Source of the DNA: Deltaproteobacteria bacterium
GTDB lineage: Bacteria > Desulfobacterota > Desulfovibrionia > Desulfovibrionales > Desulfomicrobiaceae
NCBI GenBank assembly: GCA_009930495.1
Contig: RZYB01000007.1
Coordinates: forward strand, 1-40,696
Direction: 5' to 3'
Length of the DNA stretch: 40,696 nt
The notes under the pieces are model-generated. The model did not search any database, was not told the DNA's origin, and was given only the letters and a program-made list of their open reading frames with translations. The translations under genes and the position numbers were made by a program. Positions 17,349 through 32,340 of the stretch are shown piece by piece (position 1 is the first letter of the stretch; each line of letters opens with the position of its first letter).

Positions 17349-18902
17349 TTAGTCAACGGTGACAACGTGTTCTTCACCGGTCTCAGCGTGCAGCACGTGC
17401 ACGGCACAGCCCAGTCACGGGTCAAAGGAGCGTATGAGCCGCCCCACATTGACCGGGTTCTTGATGTCCGGAACCGGCACTCCGATGAGCGCTTCCTCGA
17501 TGGGACCCCGCTGTCCCATGTCGTCCATGGGGTTGGCGTTCCACAGGGTCGCGGACACGATCTGGTAATTGTCGATCTTTTTGTCCTTCACTTTCAGGAA
17601 GTGCAGCAAGGAGCCGCGCGGCGCCTCGGTGAAACCGGTACCTTCGCCAGCATCCGGAATTTCGGACTTGACGTAGGTCTCGGCTCCGGGTTTGCACTCC
17701 TTGAGCCAGCCTTCAATGGCCATGGCCGTGAGGTAGGACTCCTCGGCCCGGGCCACGTGACGTCCCATGATGGAGAAGGCCTTGTCGCCCAGATCGCGGA
17801 ATTTCTTGGCCTCGATCCCATACAGGCTCTTGAGCATCTTCTGGCCGACGGGGCTCAGTTCGGGATTTTCCACCCACATGCGGGCCAACGGACCCACTTC
17901 ACAGGGCTTGTCCTTGTAACGCGGGGACTTGATGAAGCTGTAGGCGTCCTTCTTGTCCGGGTTGGGGTTGGTCTCCCCGACGCTGTAATGCAGGCCGCCG
18001 GGAGTGGACTGATCGAAGAAGGAATGACCAACGTATTCCTTGACGAGCTTGGAATCGAACGCCTCGTCCTTGCCGTCAATGTACACGCCGGGCTTGAGCA
18101 GGAAGGTCTTGTAGTCGTCGTCCTGCGGGAAGACGCCAAAAGCAACGACGTTCTTCCAACCGATGCCCGTTGCGAAGAGATCGGTATAGACCGAGCCCAG
18201 GGTGTAAATAAGGGGCAGGTATTCATCAAGAATGAACTTCTGCACTTCCTTGAAACGGGCCGCGTATTCAGCCAGCTTCTCGGCCGTGGGAATCTCGGTG
18301 GTGCCACCGACGACCAAGCCCTGGACGTGCGGCATGCGGCCACCGAACATGGCGACCATCTCATGACAGATGCGACGGATTTCCAGAGCCTTGAGGTACT
18401 GGTTCAGGCCGTAGGTGTTGGTCGCGTCCGCCTTGGCCGCGTCCTTGATGCGATCGGTCAGGAGGTCGGCATTGGCATAGCGGGGCACGAAGGGGGAAAC
18501 ATCCGGTCCCTTGACGAAATCCAGGGCGGCCAGATGATAGAAATGCAGAATATGGGACTGCAAATAGTTGGCGCCCAAAATCAGATTTCTGGTGATACGG
18601 CCATTACTGGTGACCTTCACGCCAAACGCTTCGTCCTGGGCCATGACCGAGGCCGTGGCGTGGGCCGTGGGGCACACACCACAGATGCGTTGCACGATCT
18701 GGGAGGAATCCCGAGGATCACGACCCTTGAGGATCTGCTCGAAACCGCGGTACATGCCGCCATAACATTTGGCGTCGGCAACCTTGCCGTCCTTGACCTC
18801 GACCTCGATCTTCAGGTGACCCTCGATTCGGGTCACTGGATCGATAGCAATCTTGATTTTCTGCCCTTCAGCGCCAGCTGCGGGGGTAGCTGCTTGTGAC
18901 AC
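17349..18902 (-). CDS. hysA: [NiFeSe] hydrogenase large subunit, selenoprotein (UGA = Sec496)
   Basis: The 517-residue catalytic subunit that oxidises H2 at a Ni-Fe centre. The N-terminal ligand motif is RICGVCPTAH (Cys74, Cys77). The C-terminal motif reads DP-UGA-LGCAVH: the in-frame TGA at 17415-17417 occupies the position of the first Cys of DPCxxC, and the frame continues for 21 more residues (LGCAVHVLHAETGEEHVVTVD) to TAA at 17349-17351. So residue 496 is selenocysteine, Cys499 is the other ligand, and cleavage is expected after His502. A bSECIS-like hairpin follows the UGA. Gene callers that treat UGA as stop would end the protein at 495 residues without its active site. The start is GTG at 18902 with AAGGAGGA 6 bases upstream. 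It has no signal peptide and is co-exported with HysB. Close to Desulfomicrobium baculatum HysA, from memory. Confidence 0.97.
17376..17414 (-). promoter_or_regulatory. Bacterial SECIS element in hysA
   Basis: Directly 3' of the UGA on the minus strand, a 6-bp hairpin is formed by CGTGCA (17398-17403) and TGCACG (17387-17392) with loop CGTGC (17393-17397) containing the G-U expected in bSECIS apical loops. The stem begins 12 bases after the UGA, within the usual range for SelB recruitment. Identified by hand folding. Confidence 0.75.
17415..17417 (-). other. Selenocysteine codon (UGA) of hysA
   Basis: TGA on the minus strand, between Pro495 and Leu497 in the active-site motif DPxLGC. It is read as Sec because the open frame continues with the conserved hydrogenase C-terminus and because [NiFe] homologues have Cys here. 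Confidence 0.97.
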
Positions 18903-24632: not shown

Positions 24633-26702
24633 ATGAAACTCAATGAACACAACAGCAAACGCCTCTTCCAGGAAGCCGGACTCCCCGTTCCAGACGGCGT
24701 CCTGATTGGCCCGGGTCAAGAGCCAGAGGCGCCCTTCCCACTGCCCTGGGTGCTCAAGTCCCAAGTCCTGAGCGGCGGTCGGGGCAAGGCCGGCGGCATC
24801 GCCATCGTCGCCAGTCTGGACGAGGCCAGCCGCGAACTCGCCCGCCTTTTCAAGCTGCGGATCAAAAACGAAGCGGTCCGCTTGGCACGGATCGAACCCA
24901 AGGCCGGGTACAGCCGGGAATTGTATCTGTCGGTCAGTCTGAACCGAGCCCGGGCCTGCCTGAGCGTCACGGCCGGTCGCGCCGGCGGCGTGAATATCGA
25001 GGACCAGTCCGAGGATAACCTCCTGTCCGAACAGGTCCATCCGGACCAGGGCCTGGCCGCCTACCAGATCCGCAATCTCTTCTACCATCTGGAGCTGCCG
25101 CCCGCCCTGGCCAAGCCTTTCGGCGCCCTGGCCCGGAACCTGTTCGACCTGGGAGTCCGGCACCGCCTGCTCCTGGCCGAGATCAATCCCCTGGTCGTGA
25201 CCGTTGCCGGCGAATTTCTCGTGCTCGATGGCAAGGTCGAGATCGACGACCACCACGTCGGTATCGACCCCAGTCTGAACCGTTTTTTCGAGCCCGCCCA
25301 CCTGAGCCCGGAGGAAATCCGGTCCAGGGCGGCCGGTCTGAGCTACCATGAATTGGACGGCTTCGTGGGGTTGATGGTCAACGGCGCCGGACTGGCCATG
25401 GCCACCATGGACGTCCTGAACCATGAAGGCCTGGAAGCCGCCAATTTTCTGGATCTGGGCGGCGGCGCCGACGAGGCCGCCATGCGCACGGCCTTCGACA
25501 TCCTGTTCGACACGCCCCGGGTCCGCGCTATTTTCATCAACATCTTCGGAGGCATCCTCTCGTGCGCAAAGGTCGCGACCGCCATGCTCGCCGCCCTTGA
25601 CGGCACGCCGCCGCGCAAGCCCGTGGTGGTCCGGTTCGCCGGCAACAGCGCCGACCGTGGCCTGGAACTGCTGCGCGCGGCCCGGCTCGACGGGCTGCAT
25701 ATCCGTCCGAGTCTGGGCGAGGCCCTGACCGTTTTGGCCGCCCAGATCGGAGACAATGTCCCGACCCGGCATCATGCCCGCGTCCGCGTGCCCTCGCCCC
25801 AGGCCAAACCGGTCCGCTCCCGCCCCGCGCGCGCCGCCTTTCCCCTGCCCGAGGACTGCCGAGTGTTGGTCCAGGGCCTGACCGGAAAGCAGGGCCGGTT
25901 GCACTGCCAACTGATGCGGGACTACGGCACCCGGATCGTGGCCGGCGTCACGCCGGGCAAGGGCGGCACCGAGGTTCTTGGCGTGCCGGTCTTCGACACC
26001 GTGCGCGAGGCGGCGCGGGCCATGCGCATCGATGCCTCGATCGTTTTCGTGCCCGGAGCCCTGGCTCCGGACGCGGTCCTGGAAGCGGCCGCCGCCGGTA
26101 TCGACTGGGTGGTTTGCATCACCGACGGCATCCCGCAGCAGAACATGCTCCGTGCCCTGGATCGTCTGCGCGCCCACCGGACCAGGGTCATTGGCCCCAA
26201 CTGTCCAGGGCTGATCATTCCCGGCCAAACCAAGATCGGCATCATGCCCGGCGATATCTTCCTGCCCGGCCCGGTGGCGGTCTTTTCCCGCAGCGGCACC
26301 CTGACCTACGAATGCGTGGACCAGCTGACCCGGGCCGGCATCGGGCAATCCGTGTGCGTCGGCATCGGCGGCGACCCATTCATCGGCACCGGTTTCACCG
26401 ACCTGTGCCGTCTCGTCCGCCATGATCCGCGCACCAAGGCCGTGGTCATCCTGGGTGAAATCGGCGGCACGGCCGAGGAGGAACTGGGCGAATACATCAA
26501 ATCCAGCGGATTTGAACTCCCGGTCCTTGGCTTCATCGCCGGTCAGACCGCGCCTCCGGGCAAACGTCTGGGACATGCCGGAGCCATTCTTGAAAAGGGT
26601 TCCGGCGGCGTCGAGGCCAAGCTCCGGGCCATGGCCGCCTCGGGCTTCCAGCTTCTGCCCCGCCTGGATCAGGTCGCCGAAGCCGTGAGCGGGGTGCTCT
26701 GA
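24633..26702 (+). CDS. Fused succinyl-CoA-synthetase-like ligase (SucC-SucD in one chain)
   Basis: A 689-residue NDP-forming acyl-CoA ligase in which the beta subunit (residues 1 to about 385) is joined by a charged linker (about 386-410) to the alpha subunit (about 411-689). The beta half starts with the ATP-grasp motif KLNEHNSKRLFQEAGLPVP and contains KSQVLSGGRGKAGG, LLLAEINPLVV and FLDLGGGADEAAM with NIFGGI. The alpha half has the CoA-binding start VLVQGLTGKQG, TPGKGG, GPNCPG and the phospho-His loop GHAGAI with His648. All catalytic elements appear present, so it should convert an acyl-CoA, ADP and phosphate to the acid, CoA and ATP. Succinate is the default substrate, but acetyl-CoA-type ligases share the parts. 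GGAG (ACATGGAGTACGGAC) precedes ATG 24633. The divergent 220-base gap holds no clear plus-strand promoter. A terminator follows at 26710. Confidence 0.88.
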   Translation: MKLNEHNSKRLFQEAGLPVPDGVLIGPGQEPEAPFPLPWVLKSQVLSGGRGKAGGIAIVASLDEASRELARLFKLRIKNEAVRLARIEPKAGYSRELYLSVSLNRARACLSVTAGRAGGVNIEDQSEDNLLSEQVHPDQGLAAYQIRNLFYHLELPPALAKPFGALARNLFDLGVRHRLLLAEINPLVVTVAGEFLVLDGKVEIDDHHVGIDPSLNRFFEPAHLSPEEIRSRAAGLSYHELDGFVGLMVNGAGLAMATMDVLNHEGLEAANFLDLGGGADEAAMRTAFDILFDTPRVRAIFINIFGGILSCAKVATAMLAALDGTPPRKPVVVRFAGNSADRGLELLRAARLDGLHIRPSLGEALTVLAAQIGDNVPTRHHARVRVPSPQAKPVRSRPARAAFPLPEDCRVLVQGLTGKQGRLHCQLMRDYGTRIVAGVTPGKGGTEVLGVPVFDTVREAARAMRIDASIVFVPGALAPDAVLEAAAAGIDWVVCITDGIPQQNMLRALDRLRAHRTRVIGPNCPGLIIPGQTKIGIMPGDIFLPGPVAVFSRSGTLTYECVDQLTRAGIGQSVCVGIGGDPFIGTGFTDLCRLVRHDPRTKAVVILGEIGGTAEEELGEYIKSSGFELPVLGFIAGQTAPPGKRLGHAGAILEKGSGGVEAKLRAMAASGFQLLPRLDQVAEAVSGVL

Positions 26703-26709
26703 CCTCGCC

Positions 26710-26734
26710 GACCGGCCCCGGTCACGTTTTTTTT
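26710..26734 (+). terminator. Intrinsic terminator after the fused CoA ligase
   Basis: GACCGG (26710-26715), a two-base centre and CCGGTC (26718-26723) form a short GC-rich hairpin, followed after ACG by eight T (26727-26734). It sits 8 bases after the stop. Confidence 0.75.
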
Positions 26735-26815: not shown

Positions 26816-27649
26816 ATGAGCAGAAATGTCATCGACATCTACCCGGACGAATTGGAAGAATTCCGGACGAAAACCAGGGAACGCGATTATCAGCTCGTCG
26901 ACGTGCGCCAGCCGCGCGAATACGACGAAACCCATATTCCAGGCGCCTTGCTCGTTCCCCTGCCGGAAATCGAGGACCGCCTGGACGAACTCGACCCCAC
27001 GGCGCATCTGGTGCTTTATTGCCGCACCGGCGGACGCTCCGCCGTGGCCGCGACCCTGGTCAAGGACGCCGGCCCCAGGCGGGGACACATTTACAACCTG
27101 GTCGGCGGCATCACGGGTTGGCAGGGCAAGGACCTCAAGGACATCCCGCACCTGGAACTCTTCCCCCGGGACATGCCCCTGGCGCAAACCTTGTTCCGGG
27201 CCATGAACATGGAAAAAGGAGCCTGCCTGTTTTACCGCTCCCTGTCCCAGGAGTACGCCGGCACGGAATTGGGAGCCATGGCCGAGGACCTGATCGAGCA
27301 GGAGGAGCGCCACGCCCGGAGCATTTTCGAATACTGGCGTCAGCACGCCACGGCACCCACCGAGGACGGTTTCGAGGAAATGTTCGAGCGTCTGGACGGA
27401 CGCATCATGGAGGGCGGCAAGCCCATTTCCGCCTGGATGGCCCGTCTGGGCACGGATCCCCAGGACCGCATGCTGCGCATGCTGGAGCTGGCCTGCGAAA
27501 TCGAATACTACAGCTATGATCTGTACCGGGGGCTGGCCAACCGCGACCGGCTGGCGGCGGCCGGGCAAACCTACCTGACCCTGGCCGAGCAGGAAAAAAG
27601 CCATGCCCGCATCATCTCCAAGGCCCTGGGCAAGGTCATGCGTGCTTGA
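26816..27649 (+). CDS. Rhodanese-ferritin-like (rubrerythrin-type) fusion protein
   Basis: A 277-residue cytoplasmic two-domain protein. The rhodanese domain (about 8-112) has the active-site loop LYCRTGGRS with persulfide-forming Cys69, plus the usual DVRQPREYDETHIPGA and GGITGW motifs. The ferritin-like domain (about 120-275) has two ExxH pairs, Glu163/His166 and Glu260/His263, with extra candidate ligands Glu133 and Glu228/Glu230, matching a rubrerythrin-like di-iron four-helix bundle. No rubredoxin CxxC module is present. The combination suggests handling of sulfane sulfur together with peroxide or oxygen reduction, useful to an anaerobe living with sulfide; the actual reaction is unknown. 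ATG 26816 has GCGAGG upstream. It overlaps the DUF362 gene by 8 bases, so the two are probably coupled. Confidence 0.87.
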   Translation: MSRNVIDIYPDELEEFRTKTRERDYQLVDVRQPREYDETHIPGALLVPLPEIEDRLDELDPTAHLVLYCRTGGRSAVAATLVKDAGPRRGHIYNLVGGITGWQGKDLKDIPHLELFPRDMPLAQTLFRAMNMEKGACLFYRSLSQEYAGTELGAMAEDLIEQEERHARSIFEYWRQHATAPTEDGFEEMFERLDGRIMEGGKPISAWMARLGTDPQDRMLRMLELACEIEYYSYDLYRGLANRDRLAAAGQTYLTLAEQEKSHARIISKALGKVMRA

Positions 27650-28556
27650 TGTTTTTCTGGACCGGCCGGCCTCGTACAGCGACGCGGCGGCGCGTCTGCC
27701 CGACCTTCTCGATCGTGTCCTGCCGGATATTCATGGCCGCTCGATCCTGCTCAAACCCAATTTCGTCTCGCCGCGCAACGCCCGCCTGTCCTGCACCCAT
27801 CCCCTGATCATCGCCACGGCCGCCCGCCACTGCCGCGACCTGGGCGCCCGCGTCATCATCGGAGATTCACCGGCTTTTGGCACGGCCCAGGCCGTAGCCC
27901 GGGTTTCGGGCCTGACCAGGGCGTTGCGCGGCCTGGATATCCCCATCATCACCCTTGACCGGAGCGTGCCCCGGTCAAGCAACGGTTTTATGGTACGGAT
28001 TTCCGCCCATGCCCTGGACGCGGATCTGATCGTGAACTTGGGCAAATTCAAGGCCCATTCCCAGATGCGTCTGACCGGCGCGGTCAAAAACCTGTTCGGC
28101 TGCGTCAGCGGCGTGCGCAAGGCCTGGCTCCACGCCCGCCACGGCGACCGGGAGCACGAATTCACGTCCCTGATTTGCGGACTGGGAGCGGTTCTGCCGC
28201 CAACGGTCAGCGTTCTGGACGGAGTCGAGGCCATGCACCGTACCGGCCCCATCGCCGGCGACGGCTTTCGGCTCCATTTTCTGGGCGCGAGCGTCTCGGC
28301 CGTGGCCCTGGACGCGGCCGCCGGCATGACCTTGGGCCTGACGGCCAGGGAGCTGCCCATCTGGGCGCAATGCGTCCGCGACGCGCTCCCCGGCGCGAAT
28401 CCGGACGCATTGCGCTTTCCCGCGCTCGCCCCCTCGGCCTTTGACGCCAGCGGCTTTGTCCTGCCAGACCAGCTCAAGCCGGAGTCCTTCCGCCCCTGGA
28501 CCTTGACACGCAGCTTTATCAAGCGGTTGTGGATGGCCAGAACGCGCTCGGTCTGA
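27642..28556 (+). CDS. DUF362 family protein
   Basis: A 304-residue cytoplasmic protein of the DUF362 family, whose members are of uncertain function and are often joined to ferredoxin domains; none is present here. Conserved stretches are SILLKPNFVSP near the N-terminus, ARVIIGDSPAFG, DADLIVNLGKFKAHSQMRLTGAVKNLFGCVSG in the middle (the KxH and KNLFG motifs are family hallmarks), VSVLDGVEAMHRTGP, and SVSAVALDAAAGMTLGL. GTG 27642 is the chosen start, 8 bases inside the end of the rhodanese-ferritin gene and preceded by AAGG; the frame is open further upstream but only as a shadow of that gene. The coupling implies a shared process, perhaps redox or sulfur metabolism. After it, 197 bases to the convergent kinase gene hold no clear terminator. 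Confidence 0.8.
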   Translation: MLDVFLDRPASYSDAAARLPDLLDRVLPDIHGRSILLKPNFVSPRNARLSCTHPLIIATAARHCRDLGARVIIGDSPAFGTAQAVARVSGLTRALRGLDIPIITLDRSVPRSSNGFMVRISAHALDADLIVNLGKFKAHSQMRLTGAVKNLFGCVSGVRKAWLHARHGDREHEFTSLICGLGAVLPPTVSVLDGVEAMHRTGPIAGDGFRLHFLGASVSAVALDAAAGMTLGLTARELPIWAQCVRDALPGANPDALRFPALAPSAFDASGFVLPDQLKPESFRPWTLTRSFIKRLWMARTRSV

Positions 28557-28753: not shown

Positions 28754-29869
28754 TCAGGCCTGGGGTCGGGGTGAGCAGCCGCTGGGAATAACGACATGAA
28801 AAGTGGTGCCGTCCGTCTCGGTCGATTCAAACCAGACCCGGCCGCCCAGATAATTGGCGCACAGCAATTGCACGCTGTAGGTGCCCAGACCCCGTCCCTG
28901 ACCCTTGGTCGAAAAGGAACGGTGGAAAAGCTGATGCTGGACCTCGTCGGGCATGCGACCGGGGTTGTGCACGGAAATATGAAAATCATTGCCGTCCCGA
29001 ACTGCTTCCAGGCGCACGGTCTGGCCCGGGTGCGTGGCCTCCAGGGCGTTTTTAAGCAGATTCATGCAGATTCGGTGCACGACGACCCGATCGCCAAGCA
29101 TCTCGGCATCGCCGCAGCGCGAATCGAGCTCGATGGTCCGATCACTGCCCAGGGCGTGCTGCCGATAGACATGCACCAGCCCCCGCAACAATTCCGACAC
29201 GGAAAACCGCTCGCACGACAGAACCAGGTCATCGGTCTCGGCCGCCAGAAGTTTTTTCTGGGCCGCGATTTCGTCGACGCAGATATCGAAATGCGGCAAC
29301 ACGGAGCTGATCAATTCCTGGTGCTCGCCCGACAGATCGCTTTTCAGAAACGTCAAAATTCCCTTGATGGCGCCAACGCTGTTCAAAATGTCGTGCAAAA
29401 AGACCCGCTCCAGGGCGCGGCGCCGTTTTTCGTGCCCGACATCCTCGAACAGGAGAACCACATACGGCTGACCCTCAAGGACAAACGGCAGGGCCTGCAC
29501 GCGAAAATCGCGGACTTCCAGGCGATTGCCGACCTGGAAGGTCAGAGAGCAGGACTCCTCGGACTCCTTTCCGGCCAGACCGGCCCTGATGCCGAGCAAG
29601 ACACCGCATTCGCAGCAGTTCGGACCATTGCCGCAGCCTGCGGCTTCGGCGTTGACGCAGCGGAAAAAATCCCCCGGAGCACGGCCGAGAAGCGCGTTCA
29701 TATCCGTGACGCCTGCCAGATCCAGGGCGCTTTTGGTCCCGTAGACCATGCGCCGGTCCGCATCGACCGCGACGATCACAATCCGTGAACGATCGAGTAT
29801 CCGGGCCAGACCCGGTCCGCTGGTGAGCACGTCCCGCAGCCGTTCGTAGTACGCCGTGTCTTTGTTCAT
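28754..29869 (-). CDS. Soluble histidine kinase with Cys-rich PAS-like sensor
   Basis: A 371-residue cytoplasmic sensor kinase with no transmembrane segment. The N-terminal PAS-like domain (about 20-145) contains a cysteine cluster, Cys71-x7-Cys79-x5-Cys85-Cys86-x-Cys88, which could hold a metal or Fe-S centre or act as a thiol switch. A further Cys107 is nearby. The phospho-acceptor region has His159 (FLHDILNSVGAIKGIL), and the ATPase domain shows NLLKNALEA (N box) and GRGLGTYSVQLL (G box). The output partner is not adjacent, so this is an orphan kinase. ATG 29869 follows GGGAGAGG. The gene is convergent with the DUF362 gene and divergent from hypF, 164 bases away; a role in hydrogenase or redox control is possible but unsupported beyond proximity. 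Confidence 0.87.
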   Translation of the reverse strand: MNKDTAYYERLRDVLTSGPGLARILDRSRIVIVAVDADRRMVYGTKSALDLAGVTDMNALLGRAPGDFFRCVNAEAAGCGNGPNCCECGVLLGIRAGLAGKESEESCSLTFQVGNRLEVRDFRVQALPFVLEGQPYVVLLFEDVGHEKRRRALERVFLHDILNSVGAIKGILTFLKSDLSGEHQELISSVLPHFDICVDEIAAQKKLLAAETDDLVLSCERFSVSELLRGLVHVYRQHALGSDRTIELDSRCGDAEMLGDRVVVHRICMNLLKNALEATHPGQTVRLEAVRDGNDFHISVHNPGRMPDEVQHQLFHRSFSTKGQGRGLGTYSVQLLCANYLGGRVWFESTETDGTTFHVVIPSGCSPRPQA

Positions 29870-30033
29870 GCCTCTCCCGCCGAAACGCGAATAAGGTTCC
29901 AAGGATGGCGTGTCATACGAACAGCTCCAGCTAAGGTCAACATTGCGGCCGATCCCCGCAGCGGCTACAGCAGGACGGCGCGGCGCGTTCCCGTGCCGCC
30001 ACGCATCATCACCGCAACCGCGAAAGAGTGAAC

Positions 30034-32340
30034 ATGAAACGCTGGAAATGGATCATCACAGGCGGCGTCCAAGGCGTTGGATTCCGTCCGTTTGTCTATA
30101 AATCCGCCCTTGGCGCGGCCGTTAGCGGCCATGTCGGCAACACGTCCGAGGGCGTGGTCATCGAGGTGCAGGGCGAGGCCGGACAATTGGCCGCCTTCGA
30201 GGATCTGTTCGCGGCCAACCTGCCCCCGCTAGCCCGCATCGCGGACTGGAAACGCCAGGAGATCGCGCCCGTGGCCGGCGAAGCCGGATTTCGCATCAAA
30301 AAAAGCACGGGCGGCGCCGGCCATCAGGTGCTGATCAGCCCGGACGTGGCCACCTGCGCCGACTGCCTGCGCGACACCCTGGAACCGGGTGGCCGCCGCC
30401 ATCATTACCCGTTCACCAACTGCACCAACTGCGGCCCGCGCTACACCATCACCCGGTCCATCCCCTACGACCGGGCGACAACGTCCATGGCCTGTTTTCC
30501 CATGTGCCCCGACTGTCGGACCGAGTACACGGATCCCCTGGATCGGCGTTTTCACGCCCAGCCCAATGCCTGCCCGGTCTGCGGCCCCCAGGTCTGGCTG
30601 ACGGACCGCCAGGGAACGCGGCTGGCCGAAAAGGACGCGGCCCTGGCCCAAACGGCCAGACTCCTGCTTGAGGGCCGCATTCTGGCCATGAAGGGCCTGG
30701 GCGGATTCCATCTGGTCTGCGACGCCCGTAACGCCGAGGCCGTGGCCGCCTTGCGCCAGCGCAAGAACCGCAAGGACAAACCTCTGGCAATCATGGTCCG
30801 CGACCTGGACGCGGCCCGATGCCTGACCCGGATCACCGAGGACGAGGCGCGGCTGCTTTCGGGCCCGGAGCGCCCCATCGTGCTGCTTCCGGCCGCACCG
30901 GACCGAGGGCTGGCGCCGGGACTGTCCCCGGACACCGCGTATCTGGGCCTGATGCTGCCCTACACCCCGCTTCATCACGTGCTCTTCGCCCTGCTCAATG
31001 ACGCCTCTCCGGCCCCGCCCGCCGCCCTGGTCATGACTTCCGGGAATATCAGCGCCGACCCCATCTGCCTGGGCAACCGCGAGGCCCTGGCCCGTCTGGC
31101 CGGTATCGCGGACTTTTTCCTGCTCCATGACCGCGACATCCTCATCCGCTGCGACGATTCGGTGCTGCGCTGGACGGACGCGGCGCCCCAGTTCATCCGC
31201 CGGGCGCGCGGCTTCACGCCCTCGCCCATCGACTTGGCCACGGACGGCCCCACGGTTTTGGGCGTGGGGCCGCTGCTCAAGAACACCCTGTGTCTGACCA
31301 AGGGCCGACAGGCCTTTGTTTCCCAACATATCGGGGATCTGGAAAACCTGGACACCTTCACCTTTTTCCGCGAGATCGCGGCCCATCTGGCCGACATTCT
31401 ACAAGTCCGGCCCCAGGCGGTGGTCCACGACCTGCATCCGGACTACATGAGCACCGGCTTTGCCCGCGAAGCCGGCCTGCCCTGTCTGCCCCTGCAGCAT
31501 CATTTCGCCCACATCCATGCCGTGCTGGCCGAAAACCGCCATCAGGGCCCGGCCCTGGGGCTGGCCCTGGACGGCACCGGCCTGGGCGACGACGGCACTA
31601 TCTGGGGCGGCGAGGGCCTTTTCGTGGACACGACGACATTGGAGCAGCGCCGTCTGGCCCGGTTTTCCCAGGTCCGCCTGCCCGGCGGCGACAGCGCGGC
31701 CCGGCAGCCCTGGCGCATGGCCAGGGCGTTTCTGCATGCCCTGGGCATCGTCGCTCCGGGCGACAAACCCTGGCCCTGGCTGGAACGCTTCGGGAATGCG
31801 GACAACATTGTCGGCCAGATGCTCGACAAGGGCCTCAACAGCCCGCTGTCCTCGAGTTGCGGCCGGCTGTTCGACGCCGTGGCCGGCATGCTCGGATTGT
31901 GTCCGGAAATATCCTACGAGGGACAGGCGGCCATCATTTTGGAATCCAGCCAGGACATGGCCGAAAATCGCGCCTATGCCTGCCCCATCGTGAGTCGCGA
32001 AAGTTTGCTCGAGGTGGACACCGCCACTCTTTTCGCGCAAGTCCATGCCGACTGGCGGGCCGGGGAATCCGTCGGACGTATCAGCCGCCGCTTCCACCTT
32101 GGCCTCCTCGATGGCCTGACCGCGCTCTGCGCCACCCTGGCCGGACAAACGGGCTGTTCCCGCGTGGGCTTGAGCGGCGGGGTCATGCACAATCTGACCC
32201 TGACCACGGAGTTGCCCCGCCGTCTGCGCGCCATGGGACTCGTGCCGTTGACCCATCGCCATCTGCCACCCAATGACGCCTGTATCTCCCTCGGACAGGC
32301 CGCCTACGGGCAGACGGCCCTGCACAGACAACAGGAGTAA
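30034..32340 (+). CDS. hypF: Hydrogenase maturation carbamoyltransferase HypF
   Basis: A 768-residue enzyme that makes carbamoyl-AMP from carbamoyl phosphate and ATP and hands the carbamoyl group to HypE, starting synthesis of the two cyanide ligands of the NiFe centre. Domains in order: acylphosphatase-like (GGVQGVGFRPFVYKSA, about 10-25); two zinc fingers of CxxC-x18-CxxC type, from CADC near residue 110 to CPVC near 180; a YrdC-like nucleotide-binding domain (GLGGFHLVCDA, RKNRKDKPLAIMV); and a Kae1-like C-terminal domain with HHFAHIHAV and LALDGTGLGDDGTIWGGE. Length fits the family. ATG 30034 is preferred; an in-frame GTG at 30028 is possible, with only a weak GAAAGAG site upstream. Required for the [NiFeSe] enzyme encoded at 17349-19865. 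No other hyp gene is in the window. sppA follows 5 bases after the stop. Confidence 0.96.
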   Translation: MKRWKWIITGGVQGVGFRPFVYKSALGAAVSGHVGNTSEGVVIEVQGEAGQLAAFEDLFAANLPPLARIADWKRQEIAPVAGEAGFRIKKSTGGAGHQVLISPDVATCADCLRDTLEPGGRRHHYPFTNCTNCGPRYTITRSIPYDRATTSMACFPMCPDCRTEYTDPLDRRFHAQPNACPVCGPQVWLTDRQGTRLAEKDAALAQTARLLLEGRILAMKGLGGFHLVCDARNAEAVAALRQRKNRKDKPLAIMVRDLDAARCLTRITEDEARLLSGPERPIVLLPAAPDRGLAPGLSPDTAYLGLMLPYTPLHHVLFALLNDASPAPPAALVMTSGNISADPICLGNREALARLAGIADFFLLHDRDILIRCDDSVLRWTDAAPQFIRRARGFTPSPIDLATDGPTVLGVGPLLKNTLCLTKGRQAFVSQHIGDLENLDTFTFFREIAAHLADILQVRPQAVVHDLHPDYMSTGFAREAGLPCLPLQHHFAHIHAVLAENRHQGPALGLALDGTGLGDDGTIWGGEGLFVDTTTLEQRRLARFSQVRLPGGDSAARQPWRMARAFLHALGIVAPGDKPWPWLERFGNADNIVGQMLDKGLNSPLSSSCGRLFDAVAGMLGLCPEISYEGQAAIILESSQDMAENRAYACPIVSRESLLEVDTATLFAQVHADWRAGESVGRISRRFHLGLLDGLTALCATLAGQTGCSRVGLSGGVMHNLTLTTELPRRLRAMGLVPLTHRHLPPNDACISLGQAAYGQTALHRQQE

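What the first reader, a model, noticed from the sequence alone, without database searches (positions are those of the whole stretch)
26816..28556. Rhodanese-ferritin-like fusion coupled to a DUF362 gene
One protein combines a persulfide-forming Cys69 with a di-iron bundle (two ExxH motifs) but no rubredoxin module, and its gene overlaps a DUF362 gene by 8 bases. This looks like a small module handling sulfane sulfur and oxidants in an anaerobe, with no described function known to me.
Basis: partly seen in the sequence, partly recalled or inferred. Interest (0 to 1): 0.58.

Follow-up and report, generated by a model that had tools for sequence, protein, structure and literature searches.

The report
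Rhodanese-diiron fusion with a DUF362 partner
An anaerobic sulfate-reducer-type bacterium carries a sulfur-carrying enzyme fused to an iron-binding bundle, encoded next to a partner protein of unknown role; close relatives of the fusion seem to replace the sulfur-carrying cysteine by selenocysteine, which suggests that this residue does redox chemistry, but what the pair does has not been measured here.

Summary
P1 (26816-27649 +, 277 aa) is a rhodanese domain with active-site Cys69 fused to a ferritin-like domain with the ligand set E133, E163xxH166, E230, E260xxH263 (kept in 61-62 of 62 homologues of the order). It has no rubredoxin module. P2 (27642-28556 +, GTG start) is DUF362 and overlaps P1 by 8 bases. 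The pair is not random: it is adjacent in 26 of 70 genomes of the order that hold both genes (3 families, 5 genera). It is also not universal: P2's commoner neighbour is hypF (50 of 106 P2 genomes), and P1-P2-hypF lie in a row in the window's genus. Outside the order no P2 pairing was found. Two results go further. First, 24 of 71 full-length fusions in a phylum sample have one in-frame TGA, always the Cys69 codon: very probably selenoproteins. Second, P2 folds like lactate racemase LarA and keeps three LarA-like residues, yet two paired genomes lack larB/C/E, so the known nickel-pincer cofactor cannot be required. Best guess: persulfide-linked redox chemistry at a diiron site (0.4). The physiological role is unproven.

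The parts
26816..27649 (+). P1: rhodanese / ferritin-like (rubrerythrin-type) fusion, 277 aa
26828..27130 (+). P1 rhodanese domain (residues 5-105)
   Evidence: PF00581; model aligned to solved rhodanese domains, Z about 15-17
27020..27022 (+). codon of active-site Cys69 (TGC here; TGA, probable Sec, in part of the family)
27152..27646 (+). P1 ferritin-like diiron domain (residues 113-277; ligands E133, E163, H166, E230, E260, H263)
   Evidence: PF02915; conservation; fold
27642..27649 (+). 8-base overlap of P1 stop and P2 GTG start
   Evidence: the same 8-base overlap in 8 of 10 other same-genus loci where both genes were called, the other two overlapping by 4 and 11
27642..28556 (+). P2: DUF362 protein, 304 aa, LarA-like fold, no ferredoxin domain found
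28056..28133 (+). stretch with P2 residues H139, K149, H164 (68 of 68 rows), LarA-like spacing
30028..32340 (+). hypF, third gene of the conserved row P1-P2-hypF (here with a histidine kinase gene on the - strand, 28754-29869, in between)
   Evidence: TIGR00143 766 bits; order
26710..26723 (+). terminator-like hairpin with T run between the upstream sucC-sucD fusion gene and P1 (weak: no more such sites in the region than in shuffles)

Best explanation
P1 is a soluble diiron protein in which a rhodanese domain takes the place of the rubredoxin electron donor of rubrerythrins. Cys69 takes up sulfane sulfur (thiosulfate, polysulfide or persulfide) as Cys-S-SH. That persulfide, or a thiol or reductase that discharges it, supplies electrons or sulfur for chemistry at the ferritin-like diiron site, most likely reduction of peroxide or O2 coupled to persulfide turnover. 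Shown here: the domains, the fold, the complete six-ligand diiron set, the invariant Cys, its replacement by an in-frame TGA (probable Sec) in relatives, and the overlapping arrangement with P2. Inferred: that the two sites work together, the substrates, the direction of electron flow, and that P1 and P2 are co-transcribed. P2 is a LarA-fold DUF362 protein. Its role is most likely to bind a small ligand or cofactor, not the nickel-pincer nucleotide, in the same sulfur/metal housekeeping context, which in the window's genus includes hypF.
For: Both active sites are under tight selection in one chain (C69 62/62, E133 62/62, E163 61/62, H166 61/62, E230 62/62, E260 62/62, H263 61/62). In the phylum sample 24 of 71 full-length fusions have an in-frame TGA, always at the Cys69 codon. 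Sec typically replaces catalytic redox Cys (established knowledge; also the title and abstract start of PMC1794560, listing). The nearest solved rhodanese domains include those of NADH-dependent persulfide reductase, CoA-disulfide reductase and a persulfide-dioxygenase/rhodanese fusion (BpPRF identified as such from recall). Neighbours of fusions elsewhere: a pyridine nucleotide-disulfide oxidoreductase (TIGR03169-like, below its cut-off) in 8 of 20 Sec loci, a DsbH/thioredoxin-like DUF255 protein immediately upstream in 11 of the 100 loci scanned, a Blh-like sulfur transferase/dioxygenase domain beside one fusion, and peroxiredoxins near a few. P1-P2 overlap and recurrence.
Against: No activity, metal content or redox partner was measured. 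Neighbours of the fusion differ between lineages, and none is universal. Most fusions lack P2 (142 of 169). P2's commonest partner is hypF, which points to metallocentre maturation rather than oxidants.
Confidence: 0.4

Rival explanations
1. P1 is an iron-and-sulfur donor for metallocofactor maturation: the ferritin-like domain holds Fe, the rhodanese holds S0, and P1-P2-hypF serve [NiFe(Se)] hydrogenase or other metal-centre assembly.
For: P2-hypF adjacency in 50 of 106 P2 genomes, plus 3 with a larger gap of about 1.4-1.5 kb; P1-P2-hypF in the window's genus; P1 next to hypF even where P2 is missing (G064, G067, G009). IscA/HesB-like genes near a few fusions. The window also holds a NiFeSe hydrogenase and, by recall of its sequence, a protease-type maturation gene.
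Against: In the neighbourhoods read, no hyp gene recurs among the neighbours of fusions outside the order. hypF is present in nearly all genomes of the order (146 of 150), so co-occurrence says nothing. In g7, g20, g24 and g27 the pair is not near hypF.
Confidence: 0.25
2. P1 and P2 have no functional link; their order is inherited neutral synteny, with translational coupling as a by-product. This concerns the pair and can hold together with any reading of P1 alone.
For: Only 26 of 70 genomes with both genes keep them together. P2 also neighbours hypF or, in g12, thiE-like genes (the thiE label rests on recall of the sequence).
Against: The pair persists in three families with different flanking genes and repeated 4- or 8-base overlaps; neutral order seldom survives that far.
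Confidence: 0.3
3. P1 is only a sulfurtransferase; the ferritin-like domain is an oligomerisation scaffold or iron sensor without catalysis.
For: The rhodanese domain scores far higher than the ferritin-like domain in Pfam.
Against: All six diiron ligands are conserved in 61-62 of 62 homologues, which a scaffold does not need.
Confidence: 0.12
4. P2 is a nickel-pincer-nucleotide (LarA-type) enzyme.
For: LarA-family chains at Z 14.1-15.8 and the next fold at 6.5. H139 and K149 align with two LarA residues (weakly, E 0.016). H139, K149 and H164 are invariant in 68 of 68 rows. LarC is commoner in P2 genomes (101 of 106) than in the others (28 of 44), Fisher 2e-6, not corrected for kinship or genome quality.
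Against: G048 (single contig, 99% complete) and G034 have P1-P2-hypF but no larB, larC or larE over the cut-off. G000 lacks larC and larE and has larB. No sequence match to LarA in the PDB sequence search.
Confidence: 0.05

Closest known systems
Rubrerythrin / nigerythrin (PF02915)
   Same: Four-helix diiron bundle with E, ExxH, E, ExxH ligands; anaerobe; the fold aligns with nigerythrin, Z 15.5, rmsd 2.2, 134 aligned
   Different: No rubredoxin FeS4 domain; a rhodanese domain at the N-terminus instead; the extra rubrerythrin Glu ligand (recalled, three residues after the third-helix Glu) is Ser/Ala here
Bacterioferritin / TM1526-type ferritin-like proteins (1vjx, 2fzf)
   Same: Six-ligand diiron site of the bacterioferritin kind (ligand set recalled); among the best structural matches of the C-terminal half
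   Different: Fused to rhodanese; no evidence of a cage
NADH-dependent persulfide reductase (Npsr) and CoA-disulfide reductase with rhodanese domain; persulfide dioxygenase-rhodanese fusions (BpPRF, Blh)
   Same: Single rhodanese domain fused to a redox enzyme; among the closest rhodanese domains
   Different: Partner domain is FAD/NADH or a mononuclear-iron MBL fold (recalled), not a diiron bundle
Selenoprotein rhodaneses, forms 1-5 (listed in PMC13188914, passages seen)
   Same: Sec at a rhodanese active site; forms 2 and 4 share the UxxG motif
   Different: No ferritin or rubrerythrin fusion is named there (0 occurrences of either word in that text); the window's own copy has Cys
LarA (lactate racemase) superfamily, Pfam clan CL0471 with DUF362
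   Same: P2 fold and a Lys/His pair; the clan membership is stated in PMC11770544 (passage seen)
   Different: Shorter, no equivalent of the other catalytic His was aligned, and found in genomes without the NPN pathway

Membership tests
Rubrerythrin (P1) | diiron four-helix bundle with the six core ligands | tested here: met
   (sequence and predicted fold; metal not measured)
Rubrerythrin (P1) | rubredoxin-like FeS4 domain | tested here: not met
   three cysteines only, no CxxC; no rubredoxin hit
Rubrerythrin (P1) | extra carboxylate ligand of rubrerythrin (position recalled) | tested here: not met
   position 233 is Ala 58, Ser 2, Thr 2 of 62
Rhodanese (P1) | rhodanese fold and CxxGxRS-type active-site loop | tested here: met
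   PF00581 69.9 bits; Cys69, Gly72, Arg74 62/62; fold
Rhodanese (P1) | thiosulfate or persulfide sulfurtransferase activity | not testable with these tools
   needs purified protein
Selenoprotein (homologues of P1, not the window copy) | in-frame TGA at the catalytic Cys codon in an otherwise intact gene | tested here: met
   24 of 24 phylum-sample full-length genes with a TGA, plus L208, L219, L293; G047 of the order also shows one TGA and was not checked
Selenoprotein (homologues of P1, not the window copy) | Sec machinery (SelB) in the host | tested here: met
   best SelB E-values about 1e-97 or lower in all 24 hosts of the phylum sample; the hosts of L208, L219 and L293 were not tested; SelB is near universal in the sample, so this does not discriminate
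Selenoprotein (homologues of P1, not the window copy) | SECIS hairpin after the TGA | tested here: inconclusive
   motif in 25 of 27 Sec against 7 of 152 Cys genes, but the kinship-aware test is not significant, RNAalifold gives no pairs and Rfam no SECIS in the 7 loci searched
DUF362 (P2) | PF04015 over cut-off | tested here: met
   156.8 bits, cut-off 24
Npun_F2552 family, NF052623 (P2) | score over curated cut-off | tested here: not met
   169.8 bits, cut-off 500
LarA-type NPN enzyme (P2) | LarA fold | tested here: met
   Z 15.8, rmsd 3.1, 209 aligned (model pLDDT 79, residues 140-167 under 50)
LarA-type NPN enzyme (P2) | cofactor Lys and His residues | tested here: inconclusive
   H139 and K149 align with LarA H168 and K178 of L295 at E 0.016; H164 by spacing only; the model is poor exactly there
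LarA-type NPN enzyme (P2) | larB, larC and larE in the genome | tested here: not met
   absent over cut-off in G048 and G034, which hold P1-P2

The most novel reading that the evidence does not exclude
A new kind of diiron oxidoreductase in which sulfane sulfur on a rhodanese Cys, or Sec in many relatives, replaces rubredoxin as the reductant. Persulfide would be consumed to reduce peroxide or O2, and the co-translated DUF362 partner would use LarA's cofactor site with a cofactor other than nickel-pincer nucleotide.
Probability: 0.18. Interest if true: 0.8.

Novelty: new variant of a known kind. Interest (0 to 1): 0.52.

Why it matters
Rubrerythrins need a rubredoxin-type donor. A family that swaps it for a Cys/Sec rhodanese would link sulfane-sulfur metabolism directly to oxidant defence in sulfate-reducing bacteria, where both polysulfide and O2 are threats. 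The Sec replacements make the catalytic role of the residue testable, and a simple gene caller splits these genes at the TGA, so they are easy to miss. P2 gives a closed-genome case of a LarA-fold DUF362 protein with the Lys/His residues kept but no known pincer-cofactor pathway, which bears on what the large uncharacterised DUF362 family does.

Tried and rejected
Tried and rejected or inconclusive. (1) Nickel-pincer cofactor for P2: attractive from the fold, rejected by the absence of larB/C/E in G048 and G034. (2) SECIS proof: the strong raw contrast is mostly kinship. The Ser codon AGC is clade-wide and shows no independent association with Sec; the hairpin motif goes the same way in 1.9 of 5 supported pairs and the other way in 0. 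RNAalifold found no consensus pairs, pair counting gave 81.5% paired cells with weak covariation, and Rfam gave no SECIS hit. (3) Profile search of P2 in PDB sequences: nothing useful. (4) Plasmid search with P1: 0 of 170 records cover 80% of the query. (5) Literature: searches 'rhodanese rubrerythrin fusion', 'rhodanese ferritin-like Desulfovibrio' (0 papers), 'rubrerythrin + rhodanese domain', 'rhodanese rubrerythrin persulfide', 'rhodanese ferritin-like', with passages read in PMC8346489, PMC5317093 and PMC10599522; none of these passages describes this fusion. The other papers listed in these calls, and those, were seen as listings only. The DUF362 search also matched DUF3623, so two of its papers (PMC12423673, PMC10892978) are off topic; PMC5742341 mentions DUF362 fused to CBM9 (passages). 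No paper on the function of DUF362 was seen among these. (6) Distance from Cys69 to the diiron site could not be measured because model coordinates were not found in the box. (7) mixed two query proteins in one file and crashed; it was replaced. TGA contexts include ordinary stop codons and are superseded. Protein 5 was a wrong range and is ignored.

Full report
1. What is there. The window lies in a draft genome of 493 contigs. Named relatives with the closest P1 are Desulfomicrobium (75-76% identity), so a Desulfomicrobium-like sulfate reducer is inferred. P1 (26816-27649) combines PF00581 and PF02915; P2 (27642-28556) is PF04015. They overlap by 8 bases. The AlphaFold2 model of P1 (66 sequences, pLDDT 91.4, pTM 0.89) aligns residues 4-106 with rhodanese domains of 3tp9 (Z 17.1, rmsd 1.8, 98 aligned) and of NADH-dependent persulfide reductase 3ntd (Z 16.4, rmsd 1.9, 95 aligned), and residues 113-277 with ferritin-like proteins 2fzf (Z 17.2, rmsd 2.7, 146 aligned), 1vjx (16.4, 2.4, 135) and nigerythrin (15.5, 2.2, 134).

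2. Conservation of the two sites. Among 62 full-length fusions in fetched loci of the order, Cys69 is 62/62, E133 62/62, E163 61/62, H166 61/62, E230 62/62, E260 62/62, H263 61/62; a further E199-G200-G201 motif is 61-62/62. In 66 aligned sequences (the window and 65 named genomes, chosen without stops) the same seven residues are invariant.

3. Probable selenocysteine forms. In a sample of 297 genomes of the phylum, one search lists 71 full-length fusion rows (my count of its table). 24 carry one in-frame TGA, 1 a TAG. In all 24 the TGA falls on the Cys69 codon; L208, L219 and L293 add three more. No codon other than TGC, TGT or TGA occurs at that place in 180 unique sequences (27 TGA, 153 Cys; the set was enriched for TGA loci). 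All 24 sample hosts have SelB at E of about 1e-97 or lower, but so does most of the phylum (263 of 297 over cut-off). The Cys/Sec state changes at least 9 times on a quick tree of 179 rows. SECIS evidence is suggestive only. Two selenoproteome reviews list rhodanese selenoproteins without any ferritin or rubrerythrin fusion (passages). Whether one of the listed accessions is such a fusion could not be checked.

4. The gene pair. Of 150 genomes of the order, 91 hold a full-length or nearly full-length fusion (my reading) and 106 hold a P2-type DUF362 (159 bits or more). 70 hold both, and in 26 they are adjacent on one strand: genus g1 14, g7 4, g20 2, g24 5, g27 1, in three families. Where both genes were called, the overlap is mostly 8 or 4 bases; three g7 loci have gaps of 2, 50 and 62 bases. 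Over all fetched fusion loci with at least 900 bases downstream or a partner, 27 of 169 are paired, all in the order, all with Cys. P2 is followed by hypF within 400 bases in 50 of 106 genomes, and with a larger gap in 3 more, including the window. In g1, P1-P2-hypF follow each other. Where P2 is missing, in G064, G067 and G009, P1 is followed directly by hypF. In f2 a different DUF362 gene lies upstream of the fusion in a few genomes (G001, G037). So the pair is real and lineage-restricted, probably old, and P2 has two recurrent partners.

5. P2. The model (10 sequences, pLDDT 79, pTM 0.83, residues 140-167 under 50) aligns with LarA-family chains at Z 14.1-15.8 (rows 1-11; best 7s91, rmsd 3.1, 209 aligned), the next fold being 6.5. 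Profile alignment pairs P2 H139 and K149 with LarA H168 and K178 of L295, E 0.016, which I equate from recall with the catalytic His174 and the cofactor-tethering Lys184 of Lactiplantibacillus LarA. H139, K149 and H164 are in 68 of 68 P2-type and paralogous rows. The known NPN pathway is absent in two paired genomes, one of them a single contig, so P2 cannot depend on it there. That DUF362 and DUF2088 share Pfam clan CL0471 is stated in PMC11770544 (passage).

6. Neighbours elsewhere. Of the 20 loci L274-L293 chosen for their TGA, 8 have a pyridine nucleotide-disulfide oxidoreductase of the TIGR03169 kind (259-280 bits for the two tested, cut-off 310) within two called genes on the same strand. 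Among the 100 loci L164-L243 and L274-L293, 11 have a DUF255 (DsbH-like) gene immediately upstream of the fusion and 3 a peroxiredoxin-cluster gene within two genes. In L182 a Blh-like sulfur transferase/dioxygenase domain follows the fusion. This is thin but points to thiol, persulfide and oxidant chemistry.

7. Mechanism and verdict. The best reading is persulfide-linked redox chemistry at a diiron centre, 0.4. A metallocentre-maturation role (0.25) is the main functional rival because of hypF. An absent functional link between P1 and P2 (0.3) overlaps with these, since it concerns the pair and not P1. The architecture itself follows from ordinary Pfam annotation and is not new as a domain list. 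What seems undescribed, within the searches named under Tried and rejected, is the Sec form of the fusion and the P1-P2-hypF row.

Noticed in passing
window 17349-18902, - strand: The NiFeSe hydrogenase large-subunit ORF ends at an in-frame TGA (17415-17417) that reads as Sec in DPULGCAVH; the next stop is at about 17349. Mechanical ORF ends there are misleading.
   Followed up: yes
window 24633-26702 +: One 689-aa protein carries both succinyl-CoA ligase halves (beta then alpha), a sucC-sucD fusion directly upstream of P1.
   Followed up: no
window 28754-29869 -: A histidine kinase gene on the other strand interrupts the P2-hypF row in the window genome; G014 and G052 have gaps of similar size whose content was not read.
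   Followed up: partly
L274-L293: A simple gene caller splits Sec-type fusion genes into an N-terminal piece of about 75 aa ending at the TGA and a C-terminal ferritin-like piece.
   Followed up: yes
G075 (genus g1), contig C200: The P1 orthologue is broken into two pieces and P2 is absent, a possible decaying or misassembled copy.
   Followed up: no
several g1 genomes, e.g. G073:C149, G061:C391, G029:C9: A second, about 30% identical rhodanese-ferritin fusion exists beside P1 in the same genome.
   Followed up: no
G000, G034: G000 has larB but no larC or larE over the cut-off, and G034 has a LarA-like gene (7.5e-49) without larB, larC or larE: orphan parts of the pincer pathway, or assembly gaps.
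   Followed up: no
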